Shown piece by piece: positions 6,171-26,438 of a DNA stretch of 48,745 bases (positions are counted from its first letter, which is position 1; every line of letters begins with the position of its first letter). The translations under genes and the position numbers were made by a program. This DNA is from an uncultured Naasia sp. GTDB taxonomy: Bacteria; Actinomycetota; Actinomycetes; Actinomycetales; Microbacteriaceae. The stretch lies in NCBI GenBank assembly GCA_913778905.1, contig CAJYYA010000022.1, forward strand, positions 1 to 48,745, written 5' to 3'. The notes below the pieces were generated by a model that was given only the letters and a program-made list of their open reading frames with translations, was not told the DNA's origin and did not search any database.

Positions 6171-6247
6171 CTCAGCAGGAAGCTCGACGCCTCAGCAGGA
6201 GCGGATCGGCGATTCACTCCTGCTGAGCCGCTGTTCCTCCTGCTGAG
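6171..6247. repeat. Direct-plus-inverted repeat element, core CTCAGCAGGA (copy 1)
   Basis: Four perfect core copies: direct at 6171-6180 and 6191-6200, inverted (TCCTGCTGAG) at 6218-6227 and 6238-6247. Start-to-start spacings are 20, 27 and 20. The same core and the same spacings recur at 35536-35612. It lies between divergent pnp and dedA. Confidence 0.9.
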
Positions 6248-6320
6248 TGCAAGGGACGGCCATGTGCGCGCCGAAGGTCCGCCATCTGACGTTCATCCCG
6301 TCCCGGTAGTACTGGTCCGC

Positions 6321-6980
6321 ATGGGCCAGTGGGTGACGGATTTCGAGCACGGCCTGATCGCGGCCGCCGGAGAGCCGTGGGCGCTCGTGGCGCTCTTCGC
6401 CCTCGTGGTCGCCGATGCGTTCCTCGTGGTGCTACCGAGCGAGACGGTCGTGGTCGCGTTGGGGGCACTCGCCCTCTCGACCGGAACTCCGGCGCTGGGA
6501 TGGCTCCTCCTCGTGGCGGCGTCGGGCGCGGTCACGGGCGACAGCCTGTGCTACCTGCTCGGGCGACTCACACGACGGGCCCCGCTCCCTCGCTGGCGCC
6601 CCCTGCAGTCGGCGCTCGAGCGGGCCGATCGGCTGCTGGCAACGCGTGCCGCGACGCTCATCGTGACCGCTCGCTACATCCCGTTCGCCCGGATCGCGGT
6701 CAACCTCACGGCGGGAGCGCGGGAGTTCCCTTACCGCCGATTCCTGCCGCTCTCGGCTCTCGCGGGGATGGGCTGGGCATGCGTGACAGCCTTGAGCGGC
6801 GCGGCGGTCGGAGCGCTTGTCGGCAACTCCCCCCTGATCGCCGTGGCCGCGTCGATCGCCGTGGCGCTGGTGGTGGGCCTCGGCGTGGACGCCATCACCT
6901 CTCGCCTCTCCCGCCGCACGGCTTCTCCGGTGGTGAGTCCCTCGACGAATGAAGGAATTCTTCCGCCCCAGCAGCCGTGA
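6321..6980 (+). CDS. DedA family membrane protein
   Basis: Encodes 219 residues, the usual DedA (SNARE-associated/VTT) length. DedA proteins act in membrane homeostasis, and some are undecaprenyl-phosphate or lipid translocases. Hydrophobic segments at about 20-70 (LVALFALVVADAFLVVLPSE) precede GDSLCYLLGR and the conserved amphipathic region TARYIPFARIAVNLTAGA, which carries the typical R-[FY]-x-P-x-[AV]-R signature. Two further membrane spans follow. The start is ATG at 6321 (MGQWVTDFEHGL). The frame is open further upstream, but the repeat element at 6171-6247 falls inside that extension. The gene stands alone, and its 3' end meets the pseudogene region. Confidence 0.85.
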   Translation: MGQWVTDFEHGLIAAAGEPWALVALFALVVADAFLVVLPSETVVVALGALALSTGTPALGWLLLVAASGAVTGDSLCYLLGRLTRRAPLPRWRPLQSALERADRLLATRAATLIVTARYIPFARIAVNLTAGAREFPYRRFLPLSALAGMGWACVTALSGAAVGALVGNSPLIAVAASIAVALVVGLGVDAITSRLSRRTASPVVSPSTNEGILPPQQP

Positions 6981-7065
6981 GGCCAGGAAACATGCGGGAG
7001 GTCCGGCGGATCTCCTTCATCCCGCTCAGAAAGTCCTTCATCTGTTTCGCCGACACCGGGCACCA

Positions 7066-7505
7066 GCGCGAGGTGGGGTCGGCGAGGAGTTCGGCGTTGC
7101 GGATGTCGATCAGGCGACGCAGGTAGCGGCCCAGTACGAGACGCTCGGCGATTGAGACGAGCGGACCGAACGGCGGCGTGAACTCGACGACGTCGACCAG
7201 GGCGCAGCCCGTCGCGGTCGGGATGAAGCCGTGCTCGTGGCGCAGGCTCCGGAACGGGCCGCGCACCTGATCATCGACGAAGCGGCGCGGACGGAACGCA
7301 TTCGACGATCCGGCCGGTCATGCGGAACGGGTTACCGAAGTGCCGCGCCCGTCACGTCACCGTCTTGCCCGACCAGATGCGCCCCGATGTCACCCCCACG
7401 ACCGCCCGACTTCGACCTCACGTGCAGGTCGATGTCGAGCGACAGGTCGAAGAGGGTCTCGGCGGACACGGGTGCGGATACCCGCCGAACGAAGCGGACC
7501 GGCAT
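7066..7505 (-). pseudogene. Decayed SRPBCC-family gene (paralogue of 22151-22600)
   Basis: The ATG at 7505 opens MPVRFVRRVSAPVSAETLFD, matching MTIRFTRVTALPVPVERAFD of the intact SRPBCC gene at 22600. Around 7400-7370 the frame shifts. The matching continuation reads IWSGKTVT, then a TGA where the intact gene has Trp, then RARHFGNPFRMTGRIVEC. A second frameshift near 7285 restores FRPRRFVDDQVRGPFRSLRH...RLVLGRYLRRLIDIRN in the frame ending at 7066 and beyond. That makes two frameshifts and one stop, so no full protein is possible. The start lies 4 bases after the ThuA stop, so it was probably once part of that operon. Confidence 0.8.
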
Positions 7506-7509
7506 CGGG

Positions 7510-8244
7510 TCACGCGGACCAGTCGCGAGCTGCGGGGTTGGTCACCTCGGGCAGGGCTCGCCCGGAGGACGTCGGCGCCGCCCACCGCACACCGTTCGCG
7601 AGCACGCGACGGATCTGCGCGTGGAAGTAGACGGGGTACTCCTGGTCGCCGGGACTGAAGTAGAAGATCCGCCCGCGGCCGCGCGTGAAGGTCACCCCGG
7701 AGCGGAAGACCTCTCCCCCGGCGAACGAACTGACGAAGACCAACTCGTCGGGGTCGGGGATGTCGAAGTGCTCGCCGTACATCTCCTGCTGGCCGATGAC
7801 GATCGGTTGCTCGACCCCCTCGGCGATCGGGTGCCCCGGTTTGACGGTCCATACCAGCTCGCGTTCGGCGTCGTTGCGCCAGGCCAGCGAGCACGTGGTG
7901 CCCATGAGCCGGATGAAGATCTTCGAGAAGTGCCCCGAGTGCAGGACGAGGAGGCCCATGCCAGCGAGGACGTGCCGCTGCACGCGCTCGACGACCTCGT
8001 CGCTCACCTCGCCGTGGGCCATGTGGCCCCACCACGTGAGGACGTCGGTGTCGGCGAGGATCTCCTCCGTGAGACCGTGCTCGGGCTCCTGCAGGGTCGC
8101 GGTGCGCACGACGGCGTCGTCTCCGAGCAGGTCCGAGAGCCCGGCGGCGATCGCGCCGTGGATGCCGTCGGGGTATATCGCGGCGATGTCGGGCTGGGTG
8201 GTCTCGTGGACGTTCTCGTTCCACACGGTCACGCGGATGGTCAC
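7510..8244 (-). CDS. ThuA-like domain protein
   Basis: Encodes 244 residues of the trehalose-utilisation (ThuA) family, a glutamine-amidotransferase-like fold. Visible pieces are [13 protein letters not shown] at the N-terminus, [35 protein letters not shown] in place of the nucleophile elbow, and a C-terminal [19 protein letters not shown]. In Rhizobium, ThuA acts with an oxidoreductase (ThuB) in disaccharide oxidation. Here too it is paired with an adjacent Gfo/Idh/MocA enzyme. The GTG start at 8244 overlaps the upstream TGA as GTGA. It is the last intact gene of the carbohydrate operon. Confidence 0.88.
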
Positions 8245-9380
8245 AGTGCAGCTCCCTCGGTGTCGATGAGGATCAGGGCGGGTCCGGCGTCGAGCCGCAC
8301 CTCCGCCCCCGCGGCGGCGGAGGCGTAGCAGGCGTCGATGATCCGGGCGCGGCCGAGTGCGAGCGAGCCGTCCTGCTCCGCCCACGAACTCTCGTCGCGG
8401 ACGTGCTCGAGGAAGCGCTCGACGACCGCGGTGTGGCCGCGCCCCTCCGCCGCGACGATCGCGTCGTCCATAGCCTCGGTGCCATAGCCCGTGAAGATGG
8501 TCAGCTCGCCGACGGGCGCGTAGTCGACCACTGAGAGCTCGGCGCCGCCGTCGGTACCGTAGAGCGTGATGCCGAACTCGTCGCCCGACGACCGGTGCGC
8601 GGCCCAGCTGGTCTCGAGGACGAGCGATCCACCGCCGTCGAGACGCAGCAGGACCGTCGCGAAGTCCTCGACCTCGTAGGCGGACCTGACCTGCTGCTTC
8701 GCATCCGATCCACCGCCGAGACCGCGCGGGCCGAGCGCGGCGTGCGTGACAGCCGAGACGGCGACCACCTGCGGCTCGCCCATGAGGTGCAGCGCGTAGT
8801 CGAGGAGGTGCACGCCGAGGTCGATGAGCGGACCGCCGCCCGCCATCTCCTTATTCGTGAACCAGGACCCGAGCGCGGGGATGCCCGCGCGCCGCAGCCA
8901 GGTGGCGCGTGCGTGGTACGGCGTGCCGATGGTGCCCGCGTCGACCGCGGCGCGGATGGCCTCGATGTCGCCGCGGCGCCGGTGGTTGAAGGCGACCTCG
9001 AGCACACGCCCGGCCTGCCGGGCGGCGGCGACCATGCCCTCCGCCTCCGCTCCGTCGCGCGCGATGGGCTTCTCGCACAGCACGTGGATGCCGGCGTCGA
9101 GCGCCCCGATCGTGATGGGCGCGTGCAGGAAGGTGGGGACCGCGACGCTCACGACGTCGAGGCCGCCCGCGGCGACGAGGTCCTTCCAGTCGCGGTAGGT
9201 GCGCTCGACGCGATAGGTCTCGGCGAGCTCGGCGCGCACCTCATCCTCCATGCCCGCGATGGCGACGAGATCGACCCCCGGGAGGTCGGCGAAAGCCTGC
9301 ATGTGCTGCTGTCCCGCCCAGCCGAGACCGATCACGCCGGCGCGCAACCGGATCGCTTCTTGAGACGTCACGTCATTCAT
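8241..9380 (-). CDS. Gfo/Idh/MocA family NAD(P)-dependent oxidoreductase
   Basis: Encodes 379 residues. The N-terminal Rossmann fold has [12 protein letters not shown], followed by [11 protein letters not shown] and the signature VLCEKPIAR whose Lys is catalytic. A C-terminal alpha/beta domain includes [19 protein letters not shown]. Such enzymes oxidise or epimerise sugars and sugar acids. The ATG at 9380 has AAGGA just upstream and lies 3 bases after the kinase stop. It is paired with the ThuA-like gene downstream, suggesting oxidation of a glycoside or its sugar. The substrate cannot be read from the sequence. Confidence 0.92.
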
Positions 9381-9383
9381 CCT

Positions 9384-10367
9384 TCACGAGTCGAGTAGCG
9401 CGGAGAACTCCTCCGCCATGGTTGGGAGATCGCTCGGGACCGCAGTGGGAGCGGGCAGCAGGTCGTGCGCGAGAAGCACGGCCCCGACGATGGGCGGCAC
9501 GGACGCGACGTGGACGTCGAACGGCAGGCCGCCGTGGAGCGCCGTGCGGATGTTCTCCAGAAGCCGAGGCGGGCGGGCGTGCAGGATGCCGCCGCCCAGC
9601 AGGACGGGCATGGTCTCGTCGTCCGGCCACGCCAGGCGCTGTCTCGTCGCCTGAGCGAACAGCACGACCTCGTCCGCCAGCCGGTCGACGATGGTCTGCG
9701 CAGCGGGATCGCCCTCGTCGGCCAGACGGAACACGGCGGGAGTGACCTCGATCAGACGCATGCTGTCCAGCGAGCCGAAGGCGACGGCCTCGCTCACCTC
9801 GAGAGCGGACGCGTGCCCGAAGTGGTCGGCGATCGTCCGAGACAGTCGCGTCGGCGGCCGCCGACCGTCCTCGCCCCGGCAGGCCTCGAAGAGGGCCGCA
9901 CGCCCGACGTCGAGACCACCGCCCCAGTCCCCACTCGTCTCGCCGAAGGAGTGGAAGCGCACGCGCTCGCCGCCGCGCACCCCGACCGCGTTGATCCCCG
10001 CCCCGCACACCACGGCGACACCGTCACCCCCGAGAGGGTCCGTGCGCAGGAGAGCGAAGACGTCGTTGACCACCGAGAGCCGGTCCGCCACCTCGGCGGA
10101 CCGCACCTCGGCCTCATAGGCCGCGTCCTGGAAAGGCCGGTCGAGCCCCGCGACGGCGAAGGCCGCGGCGGAAAAGCGGACGTCGCCCCGCAATCCCGCC
10201 TGGAGCAGGCGCTCGCGCGTCCACCGGAGCAGCGACGCGGGATCCCCGTTGCCCCTCAGCACTCCCGGCCCGTCGGCCGCGGCGATCACTCGACCCGATG
10301 TGTCGGCGACGGCGAGGTGCGTCTTCGAGTTGCCGACGTCGATCCCGAGGATCAGACCCGCCGTCAT
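9384..10367 (-). CDS. BadF/BadG-type sugar kinase (N-acetylglucosamine kinase-like)
   Basis: Encodes 327 residues of the ASKHA ATPase fold. The phosphate-1 motif is LILGIDVGNSKTHLAV (4-19), with VVCGAGINAVG and GDWGGGLDVGRAA in the middle and MPVLLGGGILHARPP near the C-terminus. BadF-family members in sugar clusters usually phosphorylate N-acetylhexosamines or related sugars. The ATG at 10367 overlaps the GH4 stop as ATGA. Beside a GH4 glycosidase, which normally handles phosphorylated or uronic substrates, a role in preparing the sugar phosphate is plausible. Confidence 0.88.
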   Translation of the reverse strand: MTAGLILGIDVGNSKTHLAVADTSGRVIAAADGPGVLRGNGDPASLLRWTRERLLQAGLRGDVRFSAAAFAVAGLDRPFQDAAYEAEVRSAEVADRLSVVNDVFALLRTDPLGGDGVAVVCGAGINAVGVRGGERVRFHSFGETSGDWGGGLDVGRAALFEACRGEDGRRPPTRLSRTIADHFGHASALEVSEAVAFGSLDSMRLIEVTPAVFRLADEGDPAAQTIVDRLADEVVLFAQATRQRLAWPDDETMPVLLGGGILHARPPRLLENIRTALHGGLPFDVHVASVPPIVGAVLLAHDLLPAPTAVPSDLPTMAEEFSALLDS

Positions 10368-11662
10368 TCCGTGTCCGTCCCCTGACCGGCGACGTTGCGG
10401 ACGAACCGCGGGAGGTAGGGGGCCGACGTCTCCAGCAGGCGGCTGACGAGCCCGTCCACCCGATCCCACTGGCCGACGAGCGGGTGGGCGAGCAGGGCGC
10501 GGCGCACGTCGTCCCGCTGTCCGCTCAAGGCCGCGGCGACCGCGATCCGCTCGTAGGCGCTGACATGCTGGATCGGTCCGAGCATCACCGGGGGCACCGG
10601 CGCCTGAGGCTGCGGGACGATGCCCGCGGAGCTGACGAGGCACCGGGTCTCGATCACGTCGTCGTCCGCCAGCCCCGGCACGATGCCCGCGTTGCGCACG
10701 TTCAGCACGTGGGCGGTGGGCTGAGGGTCGTACAGAGAGGCGAGGAGATCCACGGCCGCCTCGCTGTAGAACGCGCCGCCACGGTGGGACAACTGCTCGG
10801 GCTTCTCGGTGAGCTCGGGCGATCGGTAGAGCTCGAGGAGTTCGGCTTCCAGTCGGGCCACATCCTGCGCTCGCGGCGTCGAGACGCGCTGCCTCTCGAG
10901 AGTCGCGTCGTGGAAGTAGTAGTACTGGAGGTAGTAGGACGGGACAGCACCCAGCAGACGTACGAGTTCCTCCGGGAACGAGTACTGCTCGAGGACCTCG
11001 GGCATGCGAGAGGCGAACAACCCGGGGAGCACGTTCTCGCCGTCGAGCAGGATCCGGCGCGTCCACGAGAAGTGATTGAGGCCGACCGGGTCGACCTGCA
11101 CGCGCTCGGGGGCGACCTCGAGCAGGCGCGCAGCCCATCGCTGCACTCCGATCGCGTAGTTGCAGAGGCCGACGGCCCGATGGCCTGCGTCCAGCAGGGC
11201 GCGGGTGACGATGCCGACGGGGTTGGTGAAGTCGACGATCCACGCGTCGGGTTTGGCGATGCGCCGCACCTCGTCCGCGATGTCGAGGACGATCGGCACG
11301 GTGCGGAGCGCCTTCGCGAGCCCGCCGGCCCCCGTCGTCTCCTGCCCGATGCACCCGCATTCGAGGGGGAAGGTCTCGTCCGCCAGTCGCGCGGTCTGTC
11401 CCCCCACCCGCAGCTGGATGAGGACGGCATCCGCATCTCGGACCGCCTCGGTGCGGTCTGTCGTCAGGCGGACGTCGATGTCGAGCCCCGCGCGTTTGAG
11501 CATGCGCCTCGCGAAACCTCCGACGACGTCGAGACGCTCGCCGTGGACGTCCATGAGGACGAGTTCGTCGACCGCGATCCGGTGGGCTTGAGCTGCGAGG
11601 CCGGAGACCAGTTCGGGAGTGTAGGTGGATCCGGCACCGATGACAGCGACCTTCATGAACAT
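10364..11662 (-). CDS. Family 4 glycoside hydrolase (6-phospho-beta-glucosidase-like)
   Basis: Encodes 432 residues. GH4 enzymes use NAD+ and a divalent metal and cleave by redox-assisted elimination. Visible signatures are the NAD-binding VAVIGAGSTYTPELVSGL, the DFTNPVGIVTRAL segment, the metal-Cys motif VGLCNYAIG, and GLNHFSWTRRI. ATG codons at 11662 and 11656 are both possible. GGAAAG is 7 bases from the first, which is preferred. The gene follows the ABC importer and precedes the sugar kinase, so it probably cleaves the imported disaccharide or glycoside. Confidence 0.9.
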   Translation of the reverse strand: MFMKVAVIGAGSTYTPELVSGLAAQAHRIAVDELVLMDVHGERLDVVGGFARRMLKRAGLDIDVRLTTDRTEAVRDADAVLIQLRVGGQTARLADETFPLECGCIGQETTGAGGLAKALRTVPIVLDIADEVRRIAKPDAWIVDFTNPVGIVTRALLDAGHRAVGLCNYAIGVQRWAARLLEVAPERVQVDPVGLNHFSWTRRILLDGENVLPGLFASRMPEVLEQYSFPEELVRLLGAVPSYYLQYYYFHDATLERQRVSTPRAQDVARLEAELLELYRSPELTEKPEQLSHRGGAFYSEAAVDLLASLYDPQPTAHVLNVRNAGIVPGLADDDVIETRCLVSSAGIVPQPQAPVPPVMLGPIQHVSAYERIAVAAALSGQRDDVRRALLAHPLVGQWDRVDGLVSRLLETSAPYLPRFVRNVAGQGTDTE

Positions 11663-11693
11663 GCCTGCGCTTTCCGCGAGTGGGTGGTGGGTG

Positions 11694-12599
11694 TCATTCC
11701 TTGATCCCCGTCAAAGCGATCCCCTGGACGAACTGCTTCTGGGCGAAGAAGAACAGCACGATGACCGGGAGGACGAAGAGCAGAGTCGCCGCCATCGCGA
11801 GGTTCCATTGCACGGCGTAGACGGTGCGGAACTGGGCGAGTCCTAGCGAGAGGGTGTACCAGTCCTGGTTCGACCCCAGGTAGAGCAGCGGGTTGAAGAA
11901 GTCGTTCCACGCCGAGAAGAACGAGAAGAGCGCGGCAGCGGCGATGGCCGGACGCACCATCGGCAGGAATACCGACCACAACACGCGCAGCTCGCCTGCA
12001 CCGTCCAGATGGGCGGAGTCGATGTACGCCCGCGGCACCGACACGAAGAACTGCCGCAGGAGGAAGATCGTGAAAGCGTCGCCGAACAGCGAAGGCAGGA
12101 TGAGCGGCAGCGGGGTCCCGACGAGACCCGCCTGCGCCCACATGACGTAGAGCGGGACGATGGTCACCTGACCGGGCAGCATCATGGCCGCGATGATCCC
12201 GATCCACAGCGCACGCCTGCCGCGGAACCGGAACGCCGCGAGAGCGTAGGCGACCGGGACGCTGCTGACCACCGTGAAGACGGTCGACGAGACCGCGATG
12301 AGCACGGTGTTCGCCACGTAGCGGACCAGGGGGATGCGCTCGAACACCTCGGCGAAGTTCGCCCAGTTGATCGGGTGCGGCAGGATGTCGCTCGTCAGCG
12401 CCTGCTGATCCGTCATGAGCGCGGTCATGACCATGAAGAACAGGGGTGCGAGGAACGCGATGAGCAGCGCGATCAGGATGGAGTGGTTCGCGACGCTCGC
12501 GAGCACCTTGTGCGGCGCGCGACGCCGCGCACCGGAATTGGCCTGACGCGAGCCGTCGAGCCGGCCACGGCTGACGGTGCGGGCGAGAACGCTGGTCAC
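11694..12599 (-). CDS. Carbohydrate ABC transporter permease (MalG type)
   Basis: Encodes 301 residues with six predicted membrane segments, the first at SILIALLIAFLAPLFFMVM. The EAA loop that docks the ATPase reads YIDSAHLDGAGELRVLWSVF, and the C-terminus VQGIALTGIKE is typical of MalG-like subunits. The GTG start at 12599 overlaps the TGA of the other permease as GTGA. No ATPase gene is found in the cluster, so a shared MsmK-type ATPase encoded elsewhere is expected. Confidence 0.93.
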   Translation of the reverse strand: MTSVLARTVSRGRLDGSRQANSGARRRAPHKVLASVANHSILIALLIAFLAPLFFMVMTALMTDQQALTSDILPHPINWANFAEVFERIPLVRYVANTVLIAVSSTVFTVVSSVPVAYALAAFRFRGRRALWIGIIAAMMLPGQVTIVPLYVMWAQAGLVGTPLPLILPSLFGDAFTIFLLRQFFVSVPRAYIDSAHLDGAGELRVLWSVFLPMVRPAIAAAALFSFFSAWNDFFNPLLYLGSNQDWYTLSLGLAQFRTVYAVQWNLAMAATLLFVLPVIVLFFFAQKQFVQGIALTGIKE

Positions 12600-13555
12600 G
12601 AGCTCTCCTCCGAGTAGACGCTCTTGCGCGTCGCGGCGATCATGCCGATCGTGATGATCAGCGTGGCCGCGAACAGCGCCATCGACAGAGCGGCCGCGTA
12701 CCCCATGTTGAAGTAGCGGAAACCCTGCTGATACAGGACTTGGGTGAAGAACAGCAGGCTGTTCTGCGGGTATCCGATCTGGGTGCTGCCCCCCACGACC
12801 GTGCTCACGATGTAGGGCTGCGAGAACAGCTGCAGGCTGCCGATGACGCCCGTGATGGTCGCGAAGAGGAGCACGGGCGAGATCGAGGGCACCGTGATGC
12901 TCCAGAACCTGCGGAAGGGGCCGGCCCCGTCGAGCTGCGCCGCTTCGAGCTGTTCGAGCGGAACCTCGTTGATGGCGGCCAGGAAGATGACGATGGTGTT
13001 GCCGACACCCCACGTCATGAGCATCAGGAGCGAGAGCTGCGAGGTGTCGGGATCGTCGAACCAGAGCGGCTGCGGCAGCCCGAGCGAGCGCAGGATGGCG
13101 TTGACCGGTCCGGTCCCCGGGTTGAGGATGAACGCGAAGGCCACCGCCGTGGCCGCCGGGGGCAGCAGCGTGGGCAGGTAGAAGAGGGTGCGGTAGAAGC
13201 CGGCCCCCGAGCGGATGCGGGCGAGGACGGCCGCGATCCCGAGCGCGAACACCAGGGTGGTCGGCACCGAGACGAGGCAGAACACCACGGTGTTGCGGAG
13301 CGCGTCGCCGATCTGCCGGTCGCCGTCGAACATGAACTGGTAGTTGGCCAGTCCGATGAACTGGGCCGGGTTCACGAGGTTGTACCGGGTGAACGAGTAG
13401 TAGAAGTTCGCCAGCAGCGGATAGACGAAGAAGATCGACAACCCGATGAGTCCCGGCGCGAGGAACGCGAGGATCGTCAGACGAGAGCGCCAGACGGCGC
13501 CCCGCCGGGCCCGGCGGATGCCGGGCTCGACGGGGCGGATGGTGGAGCTGGTCAC
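12596..13555 (-). CDS. Carbohydrate ABC transporter permease (MalF type)
   Basis: Encodes 319 residues. The first membrane span is LTILAFLAPGLIGLSIFFVY, and the protein continues as a six-span CUT1-family permease. The EAA loop reads LEAAQLDGAGPFRRFWSITV. The GTG start at 13555 overlaps the stop of the binding-protein gene (GTGA). It forms the membrane channel with the permease at 11694-12599. Confidence 0.93.
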   Translation of the reverse strand: MTSSTIRPVEPGIRRARRGAVWRSRLTILAFLAPGLIGLSIFFVYPLLANFYYSFTRYNLVNPAQFIGLANYQFMFDGDRQIGDALRNTVVFCLVSVPTTLVFALGIAAVLARIRSGAGFYRTLFYLPTLLPPAATAVAFAFILNPGTGPVNAILRSLGLPQPLWFDDPDTSQLSLLMLMTWGVGNTIVIFLAAINEVPLEQLEAAQLDGAGPFRRFWSITVPSISPVLLFATITGVIGSLQLFSQPYIVSTVVGGSTQIGYPQNSLLFFTQVLYQQGFRYFNMGYAAALSMALFAATLIITIGMIAATRKSVYSEESS

Positions 13556-17922: not shown

Positions 17923-17928
17923 CAACAC

Positions 17929-18552
17929 ATGTCGGAATCGGATACGTCCTCCCCGCGCTCCCGCGGCGCCTATGCCAAGAGTGAGGCGCGCAAGCAGGCG
18001 ATCCTCGATTCGGCCATCGCGGTCTTCGCCTCGCGGGGTGCCGGACGCACGAGCCTCCGCGCGATCGCCCAGGAGGTGGGCGTCACGCACGCGGCGCTGA
18101 CCCACCACTTCGGATCGCTCGAACACCTGCTCGTCGAGGTCTATCGCGAGTCCGTCCGCCAACTCGACCGCCAGCAACCCAACCCACCCGACGCCTCCCC
18201 CGTCGAGCTCATGCGCGTCGCCTCGCAGCGCAACCACGGCGTCCCGGGGCTCGTGCAGCTCTACACCTCGCTGGTCGCTGCGGCGCTCGAAGTGGACCGT
18301 CCCACGGCCACGGAGTTCGCGACCGGGCGCTACCGGGACCTCCGGCGCAAGATGGCCGAGCTGGTCCGCGTGCATCAGGCCCGAGGCGACATCCGACCGG
18401 ATCTGGACCCTGCCCTCGTGGCGGCTCTCGTCATCGCCGCGTCGGACGGTCTGCAGACGCAGTGGCTTCTCGACGAGAGGGTCGACCAGGACGGCGCGCT
18501 TACGATGCTCGAACGCCTCCTCGCCGTCCCGGAGCCATCGCCGGACGCCTGA
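17929..18552 (+). CDS. TetR family transcriptional regulator
   Basis: Encodes 207 residues. The N-terminal helix-turn-helix domain spans about 20-66: KQAILDSAIAVFASRGAGRT, then LRAIAQEVGVTHAALTHHFG and SLEHLLVEVY. The C-terminal ligand domain is helical and less conserved. It is divergent from the sugar operon, with a strong palindrome in the intergenic space. It is the likely repressor of the catabolic cluster, and its inducer is presumably a pathway sugar. Confidence 0.92.
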   Translation: MSESDTSSPRSRGAYAKSEARKQAILDSAIAVFASRGAGRTSLRAIAQEVGVTHAALTHHFGSLEHLLVEVYRESVRQLDRQQPNPPDASPVELMRVASQRNHGVPGLVQLYTSLVAAALEVDRPTATEFATGRYRDLRRKMAELVRVHQARGDIRPDLDPALVAALVIAASDGLQTQWLLDERVDQDGALTMLERLLAVPEPSPDA

Positions 18553-18617
18553 GCGGAGCGGCAGGAACGGGAGTATCCTGACCCCGCGCACCGGCGCGCG
18601 ATGAGGATTCGCCCACG

Positions 18618-19844
18618 ATGGTCAACCCCTGGATGGCTCTGCCCGGTCTGGAGCGCGCCCGCACGCTGGTCGCCGAGTCATGGTCGCGTGCCGAGCAGGG
18701 TCGCCTCGATCCCGAGCGTGTCAGCGCCCCGCTCCGGCTGGACGGAGACGGCCTTCGGGCGTACCGCGACAGCCACCCCCTCGCCTCTGCGATGCCCGCC
18801 ATCCGGCGTCTACTCGTCGACGACGCGGAAGGCGACAGCGGAATCCTCGTCGCCGTCGGCGACTCTCGAGGACGCCTCCTGTGGGTCGAGGGCGACGCGG
18901 CACTGAAATCGCGGGCGGAACACATGCTGTTCGTGGAGGGGGCCGATTGGTCCGAGCAGGCCGTCGGCACGTCCGCACCCGGCACCGCCCTCGCGCTGGA
19001 CCACGGATTGCAGATCCATGCGGGTGAGCACTTCGCGCACCGGGTGCAGCAGTGGAGTTGCACGGCGGTGCCGATCCACGACCTGCAGACGGGTGCGGTT
19101 CTCGGAGTGCTCGACATCACGGGCGGCGCGGAGGCCGTCGGACCGCGAACGCTCTCACTCGTCGAGGCCACGGCCGAGGTCGTCGAGCGCGAGATACTCC
19201 TCACACGGCTTCTCGCGGCACCACCACCTCGGCGACGCCGCCGCGCGGCCATCGCCCAGCCTGCGACGCCGCGCTTGCGGATCCTGGGACGCGACACCGG
19301 GCGCCTTGATGTCGGCGGCACGTCGGTCGAGCTGTCGACCCGGCATGCGGAGATCCTCGCCCTGCTGAGCCGTCACCCCGAGGGCCTGTCGGCCGAGGCG
19401 CTCGCCGACGCCGTGTACGGGACCGACGCGGCACCCGTCACGCTGCGCGCCGAGATGGTGCGGCTCCGCAAGCGCCTCGCGTCCGTGGCACCCGACCTCA
19501 TCCCCCTCACGCGCCCCTACCGGCTGCCGACGCCCCTCGCCACCGACGCGCACGGCCTGCTCGCGCTACTCGACCGCGGCGCGCACCGTGCCGCCCTCGC
19601 GGCGGCGGCCCCCGTGCTGCCGGGATCGTCGGCGCCCGGGATCGAGGAGATCCGCGCCGAACACCGACAGCGGCTGCGGGAATCACTGCTCGAATGCGCC
19701 TCCGTCGACATCCTCATCTCTTACGCGCAGACACCCGAAGGCGCGAACGACGCCGAGATCCTCTCCACGGCGCTGCAACTGCTCCCGCGCCGCTCACCCC
19801 GTCGAGCCGCGCTCGTCACGCAGCTCGCCGCTCTCGAGTCCTGA
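18618..19844 (+). CDS. GAF-domain transcriptional regulator of the aldehyde dehydrogenase
   Basis: Encodes 408 residues. A GAF domain covers about 75-195 (ILVAVGDSRGRLLWVEGD ... QQWSCTAVPIHDLQTGAVLG). A winged-helix-like segment follows at about 240-300 (RHAEILALLSRHPEGLSAEA ... LRAEMVRLRKRLASVAPDLI). Proteins of this type sit next to acetaldehyde/aldehyde dehydrogenase genes in actinobacteria and activate them. ATG at 18618 is chosen; an earlier ATG at 18601 is in another frame. A repeat element separates it from the dehydrogenase gene. Confidence 0.85.
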   Translation: MVNPWMALPGLERARTLVAESWSRAEQGRLDPERVSAPLRLDGDGLRAYRDSHPLASAMPAIRRLLVDDAEGDSGILVAVGDSRGRLLWVEGDAALKSRAEHMLFVEGADWSEQAVGTSAPGTALALDHGLQIHAGEHFAHRVQQWSCTAVPIHDLQTGAVLGVLDITGGAEAVGPRTLSLVEATAEVVEREILLTRLLAAPPPRRRRRAAIAQPATPRLRILGRDTGRLDVGGTSVELSTRHAEILALLSRHPEGLSAEALADAVYGTDAAPVTLRAEMVRLRKRLASVAPDLIPLTRPYRLPTPLATDAHGLLALLDRGAHRAALAAAAPVLPGSSAPGIEEIRAEHRQRLRESLLECASVDILISYAQTPEGANDAEILSTALQLLPRRSPRRAALVTQLAALES

Positions 19845-19867
19845 CGGGCACGCCCGCCTCTCCCCCG

Positions 19868-19935
19868 CGACTGCGGTGTGTCGCGCCGACTGCGGTGTAT
19901 CCAGGCCCCGCACTCGCGGTGACACACCGCAGTCG
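19868..19935. repeat. Direct-plus-inverted repeat element, core CGACTGCGGTGT
   Basis: Direct cores are at 19868-19879 and 19887-19898. A degenerate inverted core is at 19905-19916 (9 of 12 matches) and a perfect inverted core ACACCGCAGTCG is at 19924-19935. Spacings are 19, 18 and 19. It fills the gap between the GAF regulator and the dehydrogenase gene. Confidence 0.85.
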
Positions 19936-20042
19936 CCGGGGATGCAACGAGGTGCAACGTGCGCGCTCGTAACGTGCATGCGCGGTCGGGGTAGATCCGC
20001 TCACGGCCGCCCCGCGAAATCCGATGTCGAAGGAGACACACC

Positions 20043-21623
<1,581 letters not shown>

Positions 21624-21631
21624 AGGGGGTA

Positions 21632-21694
21632 TTCCGGCTCAGTGGATGCGTTCCGGCGTGCCAACTGAGCCGGAACACCCTTGCTGGGCCGGAA
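21632..21694. repeat. Direct-plus-inverted repeat element, core TTCCGGC (copy 1)
   Basis: Direct cores at 21632-21638 and 21651-21657; inverted GCCGGAA at 21669-21675 and 21688-21694. Spacings are 19, 18 and 19, the same as the element at 19868. Flanks extend the pairing (TTCCGGCTCAGT against ACTGAGCCGGAA). It lies inside the dehydrogenase-DUF779 gap. Confidence 0.88.
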
Positions 21695-21738
21695 CACCCG
21701 GGCAACTATCGGAGCAGGGCGAGAGTGAGGAACGGGTG

Positions 21739-22158
21739 ATGAGCGAACGGGTGGATGTGACGGCGGCCGCGACGGGGATGCTGCGAACGCTGACCGAGCG
21801 GCACGGGCCGCTGATGTTCCATCAGTCGGGTGGCTGCTGCGACGGCTCGTCGCCCATGTGCTACCCGAAGGGGATGTTCCGCACCGGCGCATCGGACGTG
21901 CATCTCGGCGACCTGCACGTCGACGGCCTCGCCCCCATCGAGGTCTACATGTCGGCGTCGCAATTCGAGTACTGGAAGTACACGCACCTCACGATCGACC
22001 TGGTCGACGGGCGCGGCAGCGGCTTCTCGGTCGAGGCGCCGGAAGGCAAGCGGTTCATGATCCGCTCGCGGATGCTCACCGACGCCGAGCTGGTCGAATT
22101 CGACCTGCTCCCTGCCGCCGCGACTCCTTCGCCTCCCTCGGCGGCCCGGATCAGCTGA
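21739..22158 (+). CDS. DUF779 domain protein
   Basis: Encodes 139 residues. The family signature is clear: GPLMFHQSGGCCDGSSPMCY near the N-terminus and VYMSASQFEYWKYTHLTIDL later. DUF779 proteins are repeatedly found beside acetaldehyde dehydrogenases, and their biochemical role is not established. The conserved His and Cys pair suggests metal or redox binding (inference). The ATG at 21739 has GAGG 8 bases upstream. The 3' end overlaps the convergent SRPBCC gene by 8 bases. Confidence 0.9.
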   Translation: MSERVDVTAAATGMLRTLTERHGPLMFHQSGGCCDGSSPMCYPKGMFRTGASDVHLGDLHVDGLAPIEVYMSASQFEYWKYTHLTIDLVDGRGSGFSVEAPEGKRFMIRSRMLTDAELVEFDLLPAAATPSPPSAARIS

Positions 22159-22600
22159 GCGCGTCCCGCAGAGTGCGATTGCGCTGGTCGATCAGCTTCT
22201 CCATGTAACGGCCGAGGACCAGCCGTTCGACAACTCGACCGAGCAGACCGAATGGTGCCTCGAACTCGATGTCGTCGAACATGTCGCACCCGGCGGGCGT
22301 CGGGACGAACCGGTGCTCGTGCCGCAGTCGCCGGAACGGCCCCCGCAGCTGACTGTCGACGAATCGGACCGGCCGTTCGAACTCGACGATCCGACTCGTC
22401 ATCCGGAATCGCACTCCGAGGTGCCACGCCTGCCAGGTGACGGTCTCGCCCGGGCCGATGAGCCCCGACGTGGTGCCCGCGATGGCGCGCTCCTTCGACT
22501 TCGTCATCGAGGCGACGTGCAGGTCGATATCGCGCGACGCGTCGAAGGCTCGCTCGACGGGGACGGGCAGAGCGGTCACGCGAGTGAAGCGTATGGTCAT
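22151..22600 (-). CDS. SRPBCC-family (START-like) protein
   Basis: Encodes 149 residues. The START/Bet v1-like pattern is FTRVTALPVPVERAFDASRD, GPGETVTWQAWHLGVRFRMT, FVDSQLRGPFRRLRHEHRFV and a final helix RVVERLVLGRYMEKLIDQRN. Such proteins hold hydrophobic ligands in a deep pocket; no catalytic residues can be assigned. The ATG at 22600 has GGGGAG 10 bases upstream and is preferred over the ATG at 22609. A broken paralogue lies at 7066-7505. Confidence 0.85.
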   Translation of the reverse strand: MTIRFTRVTALPVPVERAFDASRDIDLHVASMTKSKERAIAGTTSGLIGPGETVTWQAWHLGVRFRMTSRIVEFERPVRFVDSQLRGPFRRLRHEHRFVPTPAGCDMFDDIEFEAPFGLLGRVVERLVLGRYMEKLIDQRNRTLRDALS

Positions 22601-22660
22601 GGCACTCATACTCCCCGGCTGCATGGCCCGGGCCTGCATCCGCCCGCGTCGACCGCACGT

Positions 22661-22704
22661 TCCGGCGGAATCCGCTCGCCGGAACGTGCGGTATGTGCCG
22701 GAAT
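22661..22704. repeat. Direct-plus-inverted repeat element, core TTCCGGC (copy 2)
   Basis: One direct core at 22661-22667 and inverted cores GCCGGAA at 22679-22685 and 22698-22704. Spacings are 18 and 19, the same as the last three positions of the element at 21632-21694. The expected first direct core at 22642 is degenerate (4 of 7). Flanks extend the central pairing (CCGCACGTTCCGGC against GCCGGAACGTGCGG). Confidence 0.8.
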
Positions 22705-22771
22705 ATCCGACCCAGGCGTCATATTGCGTCACGTCCGGGCGTGGGAGCACGGCACGGAGTAACGTCGACAT

Positions 22772-22834
22772 ATGCGCAATTCCGAGGTCGACGGCTCAGC
22801 CTCCCTCGTCGTGCGCGCCTGTATGTGTCTGTAG
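22772..22834 (+). CDS. Possible Cys-rich leader peptide
   Basis: A 20-residue reading frame, MRNSEVDGSASLVVRACMCL, ends with Cys-Met-Cys-Leu just before TAG. Short leader frames with clustered C-terminal Cys are known upstream of sulfur-related genes in actinobacteria, where ribosome stalling senses cysteine. This one precedes the oxygenase gene by 127 bases. A weak ribosome site (GGAG) lies 13 bases upstream. It could also be a chance frame. Confidence 0.35.
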   Translation: MRNSEVDGSASLVVRACMCL

Positions 22835-22961
22835 CGGATGCGCTCAGCCGACGCCCGATCCCCTATCGCCTGTTCGAGGCACCTGGAGATCGATGTCCTC
22901 GACGGTTCGACTCATCCGCCACCGCCGTCTCCTCTTCCGGCTCACCTCGACAGGACCTCCC

Positions 22962-24017
22962 ATGAGCGACACCTCGCAGACCCAGACCCCCGAATTCTCC
23001 TCCGCCCTCTTCGCGACCTCCGACAAGACGCTGCCGATCCTCGACTTCTCCCGGCTCACCACTGGCGACGCCGAAGGCTTCCGTGCCGACCTGCTCGCCG
23101 CGACCCACGACTTCGGGTTCTTCTACCTGACCGGGCACGGGATCGACGACGACCTCCAGTCGCGCGTGCACACCACGATCCGCCGCTTCTTCGAGCTCCC
23201 CGAAGAGCAGAAGCTCGCCATCGAGAACCTCAAGAGCCCGCAGTTCCGCGGCTACACCCGCGTGGGCGGCGAGCTGACGCAGGGCCAGATCGACTGGCGC
23301 GAGCAGATCGACATCGGCGCCGAACGCCCTGCCGTGCCCGAGCGCTACGGCGAGGCCGACTACTGGCGCCTCGAGGGTCCCAATCAGTGGCCCGAGGCTC
23401 TGCCCGAACTTCGCGAGGTCATCACGGAGTGGCACGACCGCCTCAGCGATGTCGCCCTGACGCTCATGCAGTCATGGGCCCAGGCGCTGGGAGCCGACCC
23501 GCATGTCTTCGACGAGGCGTTCGCGACCGCCCCGTCGACGCTCATCAAGGTCGTCCGCTACCCCGGCAAGAGTGACCCCGAGCCCAAGCAGGGCGTCGGC
23601 GCGCACAAGGACTCCGGCGTGCTGACATTGCTATGGGTGGAGCCCGGTAAGGGCGGCCTGCAGGTCGAGAACGATGGCGAGTGGATCGACGCTCCCCCAG
23701 TGCCCGGCGCGTTCGTCGTCAACATCGGCGAATTGCTCGAGTACGCGACCGACGGATACCTCAAGGCCACCGTGCACCGCGTCATCTCGCCGCGTCTCGG
23801 TGACGACCGCATCTCGATCCCGTTCTTCTACAACCCGGCGCTCGACGCGCGCGTACCGCAGATCGAGTTGCCCGCCGCGCTTCGAGCCGAGGCGAACGGC
23901 ATCACCCAGGATCCCGACAACGTCATCTTCGCCACCTACGGCGAGAACTCGCTCAAGAGCCGACTGCGCGCACACCCCGACGTCGCTGCGATCCACCACC
24001 CGGATCTCCTCGGCTGA
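22962..24017 (+). CDS. Isopenicillin N synthase-family 2OG-Fe(II) oxygenase
   Basis: Encodes 351 residues. The N-terminal DIOX_N domain is LPILDFSRLTTGDAEGFRAD and THDFGFFYLTGHGI. The iron ligands appear as GVGAHKDSGVLTLL (HxD) and the distal His in KATVHRVISP. The 2-oxoglutarate RxS motif is DRISIPFF. These enzymes couple 2-oxoglutarate decarboxylation to oxidation of a small molecule; the substrate is unknown. The ATG at 22962 follows AGGA by 6 bases. The frame is open upstream, including an ATG at 22893. Confidence 0.88.
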   Translation: MSDTSQTQTPEFSSALFATSDKTLPILDFSRLTTGDAEGFRADLLAATHDFGFFYLTGHGIDDDLQSRVHTTIRRFFELPEEQKLAIENLKSPQFRGYTRVGGELTQGQIDWREQIDIGAERPAVPERYGEADYWRLEGPNQWPEALPELREVITEWHDRLSDVALTLMQSWAQALGADPHVFDEAFATAPSTLIKVVRYPGKSDPEPKQGVGAHKDSGVLTLLWVEPGKGGLQVENDGEWIDAPPVPGAFVVNIGELLEYATDGYLKATVHRVISPRLGDDRISIPFFYNPALDARVPQIELPAALRAEANGITQDPDNVIFATYGENSLKSRLRAHPDVAAIHHPDLLG

Positions 24018-24052
24018 GACGGGCAGCGGGCTCGGCTGATCGGGGCCCCGCA

Positions 24053-24147
24053 TTTCGCTCCGCTCAATGGGCGGGCGGTCCTCGGCCCGTTGAGCGGAGC
24101 GAAACGCAGGGCCCGAGCGTCAGGCCCGCCCGTTGAGCGGAGCCAAA
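24053..24147. repeat. Inverted repeat element, core TTTCGCTCCGCTCAA (copy 1)
   Basis: A direct core at 24053-24067 is mirrored by a perfect inverted core at 24090-24104 and a near-perfect one (one mismatch) at 24133-24147. It fills the space between the oxygenase and the next gene. The same core recurs at 26312-26421. Confidence 0.85.
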
Positions 24148-24201
24148 CCCAGCCCCGCGCGTCGAGCGTGGCCGCTCAGCCTCCTCCGGGTCGTCCCTCC
24201 T

Positions 24202-24207
24202 AGCGTG
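24202..24207 (+). promoter_or_regulatory. -10 box of the gene at 24213 (leaderless)
   Basis: TAGCGT lies 5 bases before the ATG at 24213. That spacing places the transcription start at or next to the start codon. Confidence 0.45.
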
Positions 24208-24212
24208 AGCGG

Positions 24213-24815
24213 ATGCCAGGCGACGAGATGACATTCACCGGACGAATCGCCGGCGTCGGCACGACCTCGGGCATCCGCCTCGTCGTCGGCATGTGGCAAC
24301 GTTCACCGTTCGGCACCTTCGCGGACGTCATGGTCGAGGAACCGGACGGAACCCGGACTCTGCTCGCGCCGTCGGCGGAAGTGGCCGAGCTCATCTCGAG
24401 CACCTATTCATTCGATCGAGTCGACATCCTGCCGGTGACGGCGAGCGGGCGAGCGCGTGTTCTCTACGTGCGTTCGTCGCGACTCTCTGTGGACCTCGCA
24501 ATCGGCAGGGTCTCGCCGCTGGGGGTCCTGCTCCGATTCATCCCCGCTCCGATCGCGCGCTCCTGGCGTTGGGCGGCGCTGATCAACCCGTTCGCGCGGA
24601 TCCTCGTGCCCGGCGCTCAGACCGCTGGGAGTGCAGGCGGTGGACGCCGCGAGTATTACGGCGTGAACGACGCCCGGGCCGTGACCGCGCTCACCGGGCG
24701 GTTCGACGGAAGGGACCTCGGTGACCTCGCGCCGCTCGATCCCCCCGTGCGGTTCGGGTTCGCTCAGACTCCCGCCGCCCCGACCATGGTGGATGTGACC
24801 ACGACCATCAGGTGA
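24213..24815 (+). CDS. Hypothetical protein
   Basis: Encodes 200 residues and was not recognised as a named family. It begins MPGDEMTFTGRIAGVGTTSG. Its middle (VSPLGVLLRFIPAPIARSWR) is mildly hydrophobic with no clear membrane span, and a Gly-rich loop precedes the conserved-looking REYYGVNDARAVTALTGRFD. Composition and codon use match the neighbours, so it is probably a real lineage-specific gene. The ATG at 24213 is preceded by a close -10 box. Repeat elements flank it on both sides. Confidence 0.65.
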   Translation: MPGDEMTFTGRIAGVGTTSGIRLVVGMWQRSPFGTFADVMVEEPDGTRTLLAPSAEVAELISSTYSFDRVDILPVTASGRARVLYVRSSRLSVDLAIGRVSPLGVLLRFIPAPIARSWRWAALINPFARILVPGAQTAGSAGGGRREYYGVNDARAVTALTGRFDGRDLGDLAPLDPPVRFGFAQTPAAPTMVDVTTTIR

Positions 24816-24842
24816 GGCGATGTGGCGCTCGCTGGCTGAACA

Positions 24843-24979
24843 AATGCAGGAGTCGCGTGACGAATGCAGGAAACGCCTATCACTCAGCGGCCCGGTGCCG
24901 CGTCATTCCGGGGGCCCGCTTCCATCCGTCCTGCATTCGGGTCAGCGAATCCTGCATTTGTTTTTCACACTCCTGAATT
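24843..24979. repeat. Direct-plus-inverted repeat element, core AATGCAGGA
   Basis: Direct cores at 24843-24851 and 24863-24871 (spacing 20). Inverted TCCTGCATT at 24929-24937 and 24950-24958, and the variant TCCTGAATT at 24971-24979 (spacing 21). The central gap is 57 bases. It occupies the whole space between two convergent genes. Confidence 0.85.
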
Positions 24980-24989
24980 TGTTCAGGAG
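24970..24989 (-). terminator. Hairpin at the convergent junction
   Basis: Perfect 8-base arms CTCCTGAA (24970-24977) and TTCAGGAG (24982-24989) enclose TTTG. It is 5 bases after the stop of the minus-strand monooxygenase gene. It has grown out of the last repeat core of the element at 24843-24979. Confidence 0.5.
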
Positions 24990-24994
24990 CGAAG

Positions 24995-26074
24995 TCAGGA
25001 CGCGGCGAGAACGGGCGCCGTCTGAGAGCTGATAAGTGCCGAGCCCAGGAGCTCGAGGGTGCGCTCGCGCCCGGGGACGCGGTCGAGGGGGTCGACGTTG
25101 CGGGAACCGGCGCCCGGGACAACCATGACCTCATCGACGCCGAGGCGACTGGCGATGTCGGTGAGACGCTCAGCGGCCGCGGCGGGCTCGTCGATGACCC
25201 ACTTGACGCGCATCATGTCGATCATTTCGTTCTGCGCGGGAGTCATCGCGGTCGCGAGCGCCTGTTCGACGCTCGGCGTGGCCAGCATGGGAGCCCCCGT
25301 GCGAAGGCGCGCCATCTGCTGCAGCTGCGGAAGGGCGAGCTCCTCGGCTTCGGCGCGGGTGTCGGCGACGACGGTGTTGACCGTCACGAGCGAACGCGGC
25401 TCGGGGTGCCGCTCGGAGGGCTGATAGGTGCTGCGGTACAGCTGGAGCGCCGCCGCGGTGCCCTCGCCCGAGAAGTGGTGGGCGAAGACGTATGGCACAC
25501 CTGTCGCGGCCGCGAGCTTGGCGGAGTAGTCGCTCGATCCGAGCAGCCAGACCGTCGCCACGGACGAAGCCGCCGGCGTCGCACGGACCGTGTACGGGTT
25601 CGCACCGCGAAGGCTCAGCGCTGCGCCTTCGGCGTCCATGAGAGCGAGGATGTCGTGCACGTTCTGCGGGAACGAGTCGACGTCGCTCGTGTGGCCGGTG
25701 GATCGCAGGAGTGCGGAGATGACGGGGTCGCTGCCGGGGGCGCGTCCTATGCCGAGGTCGATCCGGCCCGGCGCCGCCGCTTCGAGCATGGCGAACTGCT
25801 CGGCCAGGACGAACGGGGAATGGTTCGGCAGCATCACCCCGCCGGAGCCGAGCGAGATCCGCTCGGTGCGACCAGCCGCCAGCGCGATGAGCACCGGCGG
25901 AGTGGTCGATGCCACAGACGGCATGTTGTGGTGCTCCGCGAACCAGTAGCGCGTGTATCCCAGTCGATCAGCGAGCCGGGCCAGCTCCAGAGACGCGTAT
26001 ACGGCGTCGGCGGAGGTCTGCCCCTCGCGGACGGGAACGAGGTCGAGCACGGAGAGTCGCAGCGAAGAAGTCAT
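24995..26074 (-). CDS. LLM-class flavin-dependent oxidoreductase
   Basis: Encodes 359 residues of the bacterial luciferase-like TIM-barrel family. Signature parts are LSVLDLVPVREGQTSADAVY, YTRYWFAEHHNMPSVASTTP, ISLGSGGVMLPNHSPFVLAE and GRIDLGIGRAPGSDP. These enzymes use reduced FMN and oxygen to oxidise organic substrates; the substrate is unknown. The ATG at 26074 is chosen because LRLSVLDL starts the domain right after it. It is separated by repeats from the FMN reductase pair upstream. Confidence 0.92.
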   Translation of the reverse strand: MTSSLRLSVLDLVPVREGQTSADAVYASLELARLADRLGYTRYWFAEHHNMPSVASTTPPVLIALAAGRTERISLGSGGVMLPNHSPFVLAEQFAMLEAAAPGRIDLGIGRAPGSDPVISALLRSTGHTSDVDSFPQNVHDILALMDAEGAALSLRGANPYTVRATPAASSVATVWLLGSSDYSAKLAAATGVPYVFAHHFSGEGTAAALQLYRSTYQPSERHPEPRSLVTVNTVVADTRAEAEELALPQLQQMARLRTGAPMLATPSVEQALATAMTPAQNEMIDMMRVKWVIDEPAAAAERLTDIASRLGVDEVMVVPGAGSRNVDPLDRVPGRERTLELLGSALISSQTAPVLAAS

Positions 26075-26129
26075 CGAATACGTCAACCGTCGGAGAGGCG
26101 GTGGCATTCCGGGGCGGATGCCGGGGCCT

Positions 26130-26169
26130 CCATTTCGCTGGATTCAATGAGTGGAACACCGCGCGCCCG
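26130..26169. repeat. Degenerate copy of the TTTCGCTCCGCTCAA repeat
   Basis: CATTTCGCTGGATTCAATGA followed by GTGGAACACCG resembles the 26309-26348 unit over about 40 bases. A partial inverted counterpart (CGCCCGTTGAGGAGG) begins at 26231. Confidence 0.6.
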
Positions 26170-26290
26170 TTACGCAGGGGCCGCTTCGCGACGGTCGCAG
26201 AGCGACCTCCTCAGCGACCGGAACCGTCAACGCCCGTTGAGGAGGGCCGCCAGGGTCGTCGGGGAACTCGCATGAGGCAGCACTCGCCCG

Positions 26291-26406
26291 AACGGCGCCC
26301 CCACTCCTTCATTTCGCTCCGCTCAATGGGCGGAACACCGCCCGCCCGAACGACGCCCCCACTCCTTCATCTCGCTCCGCTCAATGGGCGGAACACCGCC
26401 TGCCGG
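26291..26406. repeat. 58-bp tandem duplication with TTTCGCTCCGCTCAA core
   Basis: Bases 26291-26348 and 26349-26406 are two adjacent 58-base copies matching at 54 of 58 positions. Each contains the core at 26312-26326 and 26370-26384 (one mismatch). An inverted core TTGAGCGGAGCGAAA follows at 26407-26421. The core is shared with 24053-24147. It lies downstream of the FMN reductase stop. Confidence 0.9.
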
Positions 26407-26438
26407 TTGAGCGGAGCGAAACGAAAAGGCCGGACGGA

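What the first reader, a model, noticed from the sequence alone, without database searches (positions are those of the whole stretch)
6171..26421. Family of intergenic elements with fixed geometry but different core sequences
At least five intergenic elements carry a short core in two direct copies, then inverted copies. Start-to-start spacings are 20/27/20 at 6171 and 35536, and 19/18/19 at 19868 and 21632. The element at 22661 fits the last three slots of 19/18/19, with its first slot degenerate. The element at 24843 is looser (20/66/21/21). Cores differ (CTCAGCAGGA, CGACTGCGGTGT, TTCCGGC, AATGCAGGA), so geometry rather than sequence is conserved. Spacing near two helical turns suggests protein binding on one DNA face or a fixed folded structure. 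Ordinary terminators and REP elements do not predict this.
Basis: seen in the sequence. Interest (0 to 1): 0.85.

Follow-up and report, generated by a model that had tools for sequence, protein, structure and literature searches.

The report
REP-like repeats paired with DUF559 nucleases
The window holds members of several families of short palindromic DNA repeats, the best studied of which sits mostly just after genes; at least some such families go with their own predicted DNA-cutting enzyme, whose gene is flanked on both sides by the same repeat, a pairing that resembles the known REP/RAYT repeats but uses an unrelated enzyme.

Summary
Six window elements belong to four repeat families. CTCAGCAGGA (F1) occurs at about 35 places in this genome; 24 of 25 exact pairs are spaced 20 bp though 16-24 was allowed. 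Different cores share a 19-21 bp arm step; shuffled DNA gives almost none. F1 elements lie a median 32 bp from a stop codon and avoid divergent promoters, like REP elements, but the genus has no RAYT. Instead, genes for DUF559 proteins (Vsr/homing-type nuclease fold) are flanked on both sides by one repeat: 29 of 57 in Microbacteriaceae, 5 of 820 control genes, 0 of 27 in other families. Cores follow the enzyme tree. A core read from one enzyme's flanks (GATCAGGA) predicted a repeat family with 51 pairs in a genome without F1; AATGCAGGA pairs occur only in the genome with the matching gene (52 against 0 in 8). Best reading: REP-like repeats bound, and probably spread or homogenised, by cognate DUF559 nucleases. 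The pairing is well supported; binding, cutting and copying are inferred. Some families, two in the window, have no enzyme found, and the F1 enzyme is broken here. My searches found no paper describing this.

The parts
6171..6247. F1 element, cores CTCAGCAGGA at 6171, 6191 and inverted at 6218, 6238; the only divergent-context F1 copy among 33 own-genome copies
   Evidence: model match 74.2 bits
35536..35612 (.). F1 element between two convergent genes, 12 and 14 bp from their stop codons
   Evidence: model match 84.6 bits; RNA fold z -11.0
19868..19935 (.). F5 element, core CGACTGCGG(A/T)GT, 23 bp after a stop codon; two further copies, with degenerate inner cores, at L010 3334 and L019 1434
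21631..21695 (.). F4b element, core (A/G)TTCCGGC, 7 bp after the aldehyde dehydrogenase stop codon; relatives at L011 5057 and L069 965
22651..22705 (.). F4 element ACCGCACGTTCCGGCG...CGCCGGAACGTGCGGT plus a third half copy; further copies in L012, L019 and L022
24837..24985 (.). F2 element, TGAACAAATGCAGGA...TGTTCA, two plus three cores, between convergent genes
   Evidence: 52 exact F2 direct pairs in own genome, 0 in 8 congeners

Best explanation
The elements are REP-like dispersed palindromic repeats. At least some families have a cognate DUF559 protein whose gene lies between two copies of the repeat. The protein (AbiEi-like N-terminus, Vsr/I-Bth0305I-like nuclease C-terminus) is inferred to bind the core, one unit per about two helical turns, which would fix the 19-21 bp step and the two-fold symmetry. 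Shown: the families, the geometry, the 3'-end placement of F1, the enzyme-repeat pairing, and the match of core to enzyme. Inferred: that the protein binds the repeat, nicks or cuts it, and that repair from another copy spreads and homogenises the family, while the hairpin is tolerated or used as a 3'-end structure.
For: DUF559 genes with a 9-mer at least twice in both 400-bp flanks, inverted copies included: genus 18 of 30, other genera of the family 11 of 27, other families of the class 0 of 27, control genes 5 of 820 (Fisher p 2e-33, which treats related genes as independent). Without the inverted-copy rule: 18, 13, 0 and 8. Prediction test: GATCAGGA, seen at DUF559 flanks of G132 and G185, was then found as 51 direct pairs in G132, which has no F1 match. 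F2: 52 pairs in own genome, 0 in 8 congeners; own genome holds the F2-flanked gene. F1-clade enzyme: present in six of six genomes at least 90% complete that have F1 (broken in G000), absent in two of two without F1. Core similarity follows the enzyme tree: 21 pairs sharing a core 7-mer have mean patristic distance 1.72 against 3.16, 0 of 2000 permutations as low. F1 context: convergent 51, tandem 63, divergent 9 of 123; background 119, 308, 155. Nuclease part resembles I-Bth0305I. Within-species spacer identity 0.636, between species 0.577, and 15 pairs at orthologous gene ends show no excess, -0.014.
Against: No binding, cutting or movement was observed. F4 and F5 of the window have no partner among the three DUF559 loci found in the own genome. 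The own F1 enzyme is broken although its elements are well conserved. G232 has 6 GATCAGGA pairs, G132 9 CCAAATCANGGAGAT sites, and incomplete G300 7 F1 matches, with no matching enzyme found. In G068 and G299 the F1-clade gene is flanked by CAACAGG, not CAGCAGG. 28 of 57 family DUF559 genes fail the flank test, and none of 27 outside passes. F2 is not clearly 3'-placed (2 of 6 divergent); tandem GATCAGGA clusters are nearer the stop in only 5 of 8. Lack of ortholog excess could be plain saturation of spacers. AbiEi_4 matches are under the curated cut-off; the model is middling (pLDDT 71) and no Foldseek hit reached E 0.001.
Confidence: 0.7

Rival explanations
1. The elements are bidirectional transcription terminators or mRNA 3'-end hairpins, kept for that function; the DUF559 link is secondary.
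For: Median 32 bp to the nearest stop codon for the 115 of 124 F1 elements with a stop facing them; convergent enrichment and divergent depletion; strong hairpins, z -4.5 to -11.0 for six window elements. In G000 the loop stem pairs better than shuffled (0.700 against 0.626), and pooled across species arms match better than shuffled.
Against: A terminator needs no genome-wide identical core, no doubled core, no fixed 19-21 bp step and no cognate enzyme. Spacer pairing within species is not above shuffles. By eye the two F1 copies in the window have no T-run behind the hairpin; T-runs were not scanned.
Confidence: 0.35
2. DUF559 proteins are autoregulated repressors of AbiEi type; the elements are their operators, and dispersed copies form a regulon.
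For: Weak AbiEi_4 match in 5 of 10 proteins, below its cut-off; an AbiEi antitoxin among the structure hits; elements lie upstream of the gene.
Against: Elements also lie downstream of the enzyme gene, and F1 elements avoid promoter regions (9 of 123 divergent; in tandem gaps 51 of 63 nearer the upstream stop).
Confidence: 0.15
3. The elements are miniature transposons of a Mu/Tn7/IS21-like element, whose ends carry repeated 19-22 bp binding sites in direct, then inverted order (layout recalled, from no call).
For: ++ -- and +++ -- layout; F2 ends TGAACA...TGTTCA.
Against: The gene repeatedly found between two elements is DUF559. Such transposases were not searched for, and target duplications were only looked at by eye, so this is weak.
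Confidence: 0.1
4. Known REP elements moved by a RAYT transposase.
For: Same placement and flanked-gene layout as described for REPtrons (PMC3733652, sections 15 and 16 read).
Against: 0 of 9 genus genomes have a Y1_Tnp match, while 5 of 14 control genomes do; no GTAG or CGTC tag at the element feet in the F1 consensus (by eye).
Confidence: 0.02

Closest known systems
REP/REPIN repeats with RAYT (REPtrons)
   Same: Short palindromic intergenic repeats in many copies, next to 3' ends, in dimers and clusters; enzyme gene flanked by its own repeat; repeat-specific enzymes
   Different: Enzyme is a DUF559 Vsr-like predicted nuclease, not a HUH tyrosine transposase; two cores per arm at 19-21 bp in many families; no GTAG/CGTC tag in F1
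Vsr-like homing endonucleases (I-Bth0305I)
   Same: Nuclease fold by Foldseek; site-specific cutting could drive copying by repair
   Different: Not seen inside an intron or intein; the target would be a dispersed repeat family
AbiEi antitoxin family
   Same: Weak match of the N-terminal domain; AbiEi antitoxins bind DNA (recalled)
   Different: Nuclease domain at the C-terminus; no toxin partner was looked for
DUF559 protein VsrA of Caulobacter (PMC12907096, passages seen)
   Same: DUF559, PD-(D/E)XK fold
   Different: Proposed there to act in mismatch repair with a methyltransferase; the passages seen mention no flanking repeat family

Membership tests
REP/REPIN-RAYT | Multicopy short intergenic palindrome | tested here: met
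   F1: 70 two-strand matches, 34 distinct places in the capped listing; F2: 52 direct pairs
REP/REPIN-RAYT | Located after 3' ends, depleted between divergent genes | tested here: met
   F1. F2 and GATCAGGA only partly
REP/REPIN-RAYT | RAYT (Y1_Tnp) gene present | tested here: not met
   0 of 9 genus genomes
REP/REPIN-RAYT | GTAG or CGTC tag at the foot | tested here: not met
   F1 consensus, by eye; other families not checked
REP/REPIN-RAYT | Cognate enzyme gene flanked by the repeat | tested here: met
   met with DUF559 in place of RAYT: 29 of 57 against 5 of 820
Vsr/EDxHD homing endonuclease | PD-(D/E)XK Vsr-like catalytic fold with conserved acidic residues | tested here: met
   E191, D218, D241 invariant in 18 sequences; Foldseek 3r3p_B, probability 1.00, TMt 0.75, E 0.011, so modest
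Vsr/EDxHD homing endonuclease | Encoded in an intron or intein | tested here: not met
   free-standing gene between sdhB and BrkB in the loci looked at
Vsr/EDxHD homing endonuclease | Cuts a specific site | not testable with these tools
   needs biochemistry
Intrinsic terminator | Stable hairpin after the gene | tested here: met
Intrinsic terminator | T-run behind the hairpin | not tested
   only looked at by eye for the two window F1 copies
Intrinsic terminator | Hairpin maintained by compensatory changes | tested here: inconclusive
   spacers not above shuffles within species; loop stem above in G000; pooled species above
Mu/Tn7/IS21-type miniature element | Target-site duplication and matching transposase | not tested
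   no close strain pair at hand; transposase families other than Y1_Tnp not searched

The most novel reading that the evidence does not exclude
DUF559 nucleases act as homing-type drivers of private intergenic repeat families: each cuts its own repeat, repair from another copy converts or inserts a copy, so the family is homogenised within a species, and changes of nuclease specificity found new families with new cores but the same two-turn geometry.
Probability: 0.35. Interest if true: 0.92.

Novelty: new variant of a known kind. Interest (0 to 1): 0.8.

Why it matters
It offers a candidate role for DUF559, an uncharacterised domain found in 187 of 295 sampled genomes of the class, although the repeat link was seen only in Microbacteriaceae. 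It would show that the REP/RAYT arrangement arose more than once with unrelated enzymes. It also gives a natural set of paralogs with different apparent recognition sequences, so specificity and its change can be studied directly.

Tried and rejected
RAYT as the enzyme: rejected. Base-pair covariation as the maintaining force: not supported for spacers within species. F4 pair in L019: the stretch between them holds two called ORFs that look like a split NAD-binding protein by eye, not DUF559; the Pfam check failed and was not repeated. DUF559 loci of other families of the class: 0 of 27 with flanking repeats; of 29 loci, one had no gene found and one a short flank, both dropped. These proteins score lower with the HMM (48-108 bits), so they are another subfamily. 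The first flank test (21 of 54 against 9 of 770) used some wrong gene ends and is replaced. The PF04480 scan missed F1-clade genes in G299 and G232 that the protein search found. In one search, for L088/L152 only one of three possible pairs was used.

Literature, full-text searches: DUF559 + palindromic gave 2 papers, seen as listing only, on CRISPR/quorum sensing and on NAD; DUF559 + mobile + repeat + endonuclease gave 3; Microbacteriaceae + repetitive extragenic palindromic gave 2 unrelated by title; Vsr + REP elements + transposase + palindromic 0; REPIN + RAYT terms 5; AbiEi + DUF559 0; DUF559 + inverted repeat 0; Vsr + repetitive extragenic palindromic 0. None was seen to describe this pairing; the library lacks most subscription papers.
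Full report
Setting. The window is contig 22 of a 3.2 Mb genome. The window genome itself has no name here.

Observation. All six reported elements are present. The F1 core CTCAGCAGGA forms 25 exact direct pairs genome-wide, 24 of them spaced 20 bp although 16-24 was allowed, 0 for the reversed control pattern. Twenty F1 elements align over 107 columns without a gap: cores nearly invariant, spacers variable. A sequence-only model gives 70 two-strand matches, about 35 places, in the own genome and 58, 42, 43, 144, 29 and 7 in G068, G185, G299, G232, G301 and the 68% complete G300; G132 and G273 have none (150 candidates scored per genome, so G232 may be a lower bound). With free spacing the own genome gives 20/28/20 in 30 of 30; in relatives 37 of 65 are 20/28/20 and 22 of 65 are 19/28/19; shuffles give 0. 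A scan for any core finds 134 intergenic elements, 4 coding, 1 in shuffles: 110 F1, 6 F2, 18 others. The 18 have left arm steps of 19 (16) or 20 (2) although 14-26 was allowed; 7 are a CAACAGG variant of F1, and the 11 with other cores (CGACTGCG, GTTCCGGC, TGTCGCAAC-like, CCGAGCGC and others) all have 19. F2 has 20 or 21. So the step is shared, while core and centre are family-specific. Most stretches were picked around F1, which enriches F1 only.

Position. Of 123 F1 elements with two flanking genes, 51 are convergent, 63 tandem and 9 divergent, against 119, 308 and 155 for intergenic gaps of 90-800 bp in the same loci; in tandem gaps 51 of 63 lie nearer the upstream stop than the downstream start (Fisher tests). 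Genes were called with a home-made codon model, so distances are approximate. This matches the published description of REP placement (PMC3733652, section 15). GATCAGGA clusters in G132 are 14 convergent, 8 tandem, 3 divergent, but only 5 of 8 tandem ones are nearer the stop, and a few of the 25 look like chance. F2: 2 of 6 divergent.

Structure. Six window elements and two from enzyme loci fold better than all 200 shuffles, z -4.1 to -11.0. Within species the spacer arms pair no better than arms of different elements (own genome 0.679 against 0.665, 30 elements); the loop stem does (0.700 against 0.626, 0.5% of shuffles) and inner cores slightly (0.956 against 0.945, 3%). Pooled across species, pairing exceeds shuffles, because each species has its own spacer sequence in both arms. 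Recognition of each half explains this better than selection on pairing alone, though recent common origin within a species could also hide covariation.

Turnover. Fifteen pairs of elements lie at orthologous gene ends in two species (from; six of the fifteen are at the sdhB locus); the spacing class differs in ten. Their spacers and loops are no more alike than other pairs from the same species (excess -0.014), while identity within species is 0.636 and between species 0.577. This fits homogenisation within species or repeated insertion at the same places, but spacers may also simply be saturated between species.

The enzyme. No RAYT was found in the genus (0 of 9). At the sdhB-BrkB locus F1 elements lie on both sides of a DUF559 gene. 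DUF559 loci were then scanned: both-sided F1 in G185, G232 and G000, both-sided F2 in G000. With the gene placed by an HMM, a 9-mer present at least twice in both 400 bp flanks, inverted copies included, occurs in 18 of 30 genus genes, 11 of 27 from other genera of the family, 0 of 27 from other families, and 5 of 820 control genes. The loci are the best-scoring ones returned, not a random sample; some are orthologs of each other; two class loci were dropped. The two elements beside one gene share core and spacing, for example 73/73, 75/75, 43/43, 66/66 and 57/57 bp.

Core follows enzyme. GATCAGGA was read from DUF559 flanks and then found as 51 direct pairs in G132 (2 beside the gene, 9 in one array), 20 in G068, 11 in G185, 8 in G299, 6 in G232, 1 each in G273 and G300, 0 in G000 and G301, 0 in the control pattern of every genome. 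In G132 47 same-strand steps are 19 bp. F2 is confined to G000 (52 pairs, 5 of them beside the enzyme gene, against 0 in 8). CCAAATCANGGAGAT: 8 in G000 (4 beside its gene), 15 in G299 (3 beside its gene), 9 in G132, 1 in G232, 1 in G300, 0 in four; G132 has no gene with that core among its three PF04480 hits. Searched with the G185 protein, F1-clade enzymes of 49-60% identity appear in G232 (two), G068, G299 and G301 and two broken pieces (67%, 73%) in G000; G132 and G273, which lack F1, have only 33-39% relatives; G300 has none at E 1e-15. In G068 and G299 that gene is flanked by the CAACAGG variant. On a tree of 54 genus and family proteins plus six sdhB-linked ones, genes with related cores group together; among the 31 of 54 with cores the link is beyond 2000 permutations. 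The sdhB-linked gene of other genera has other flanking cores: Herbiconiux around GACGACGGAG, Amnibacterium GTAGGCCGA, by eye.

Protein. About 290 residues. DUF559 is above its cut-off in 10 of 10 proteins; AbiEi_4 is seen in 5 of 10, below its cut-off (20.8-24.5 against 25 bits); MTES_1575 is above cut-off in 1. S188, E191, D218 and D241 are invariant in 18 sequences. The model of the Naasia RYN_89 protein (pLDDT 71, five sequences) is closest to the I-Bth0305I catalytic domain (E 0.011, probability 1.00) and an AbiEi antitoxin (E 0.032, probability 0.80); none reaches E 0.001.

Reading. The best account is a REP-like system with a DUF559 nuclease in the place of RAYT. The pairing is well supported. 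Binding and the two-turn spacing are a natural inference. Cutting and copying are inferred from fold, conserved residues and within-species similarity. Several families, including F4 and F5 of the window, have no known partner here and may be orphans, as F1 now seems to be in this genome.

Noticed in passing
window 24043-24152 and 26310-26426: Another palindromic repeat family (TTTCGCTCCGCTCAATGGGC / GCCCGTTGAGCGGAGCGAAACG), six half copies in the window; no DUF559 link seen.
   Followed up: no
L010 2631, L014 975, L016 13935, L019 278, L020 4960: A further palindromic family with core CTACTCG, between convergent genes in 4 of 5, with wider arm spacing (27-64).
   Followed up: no
L023 8717-9349 (G000:C8): The DUF559 gene of the F1 family is broken and shortened in the window genome, open at the same locus in G185 and G232.
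   Followed up: yes
G132:C1:2578508-2578765: Tandem array of GATCAGGA units every 19 bp, like a short satellite.
   Followed up: no
L078 5066-5613 (G185): Five F1 elements of two alternating subtypes (20 and 19 bp arms) in tandem between convergent genes.
   Followed up: partly
L250, L265, L266, L271, L273 and tree neighbours: A second DUF559 subfamily whose flanking repeats are single inverted pairs about 39-48 bp apart with related cores.
   Followed up: partly
window 42296-47861: The codon model called no genes here although long minus-strand ORFs exist; possibly foreign DNA.
   Followed up: no
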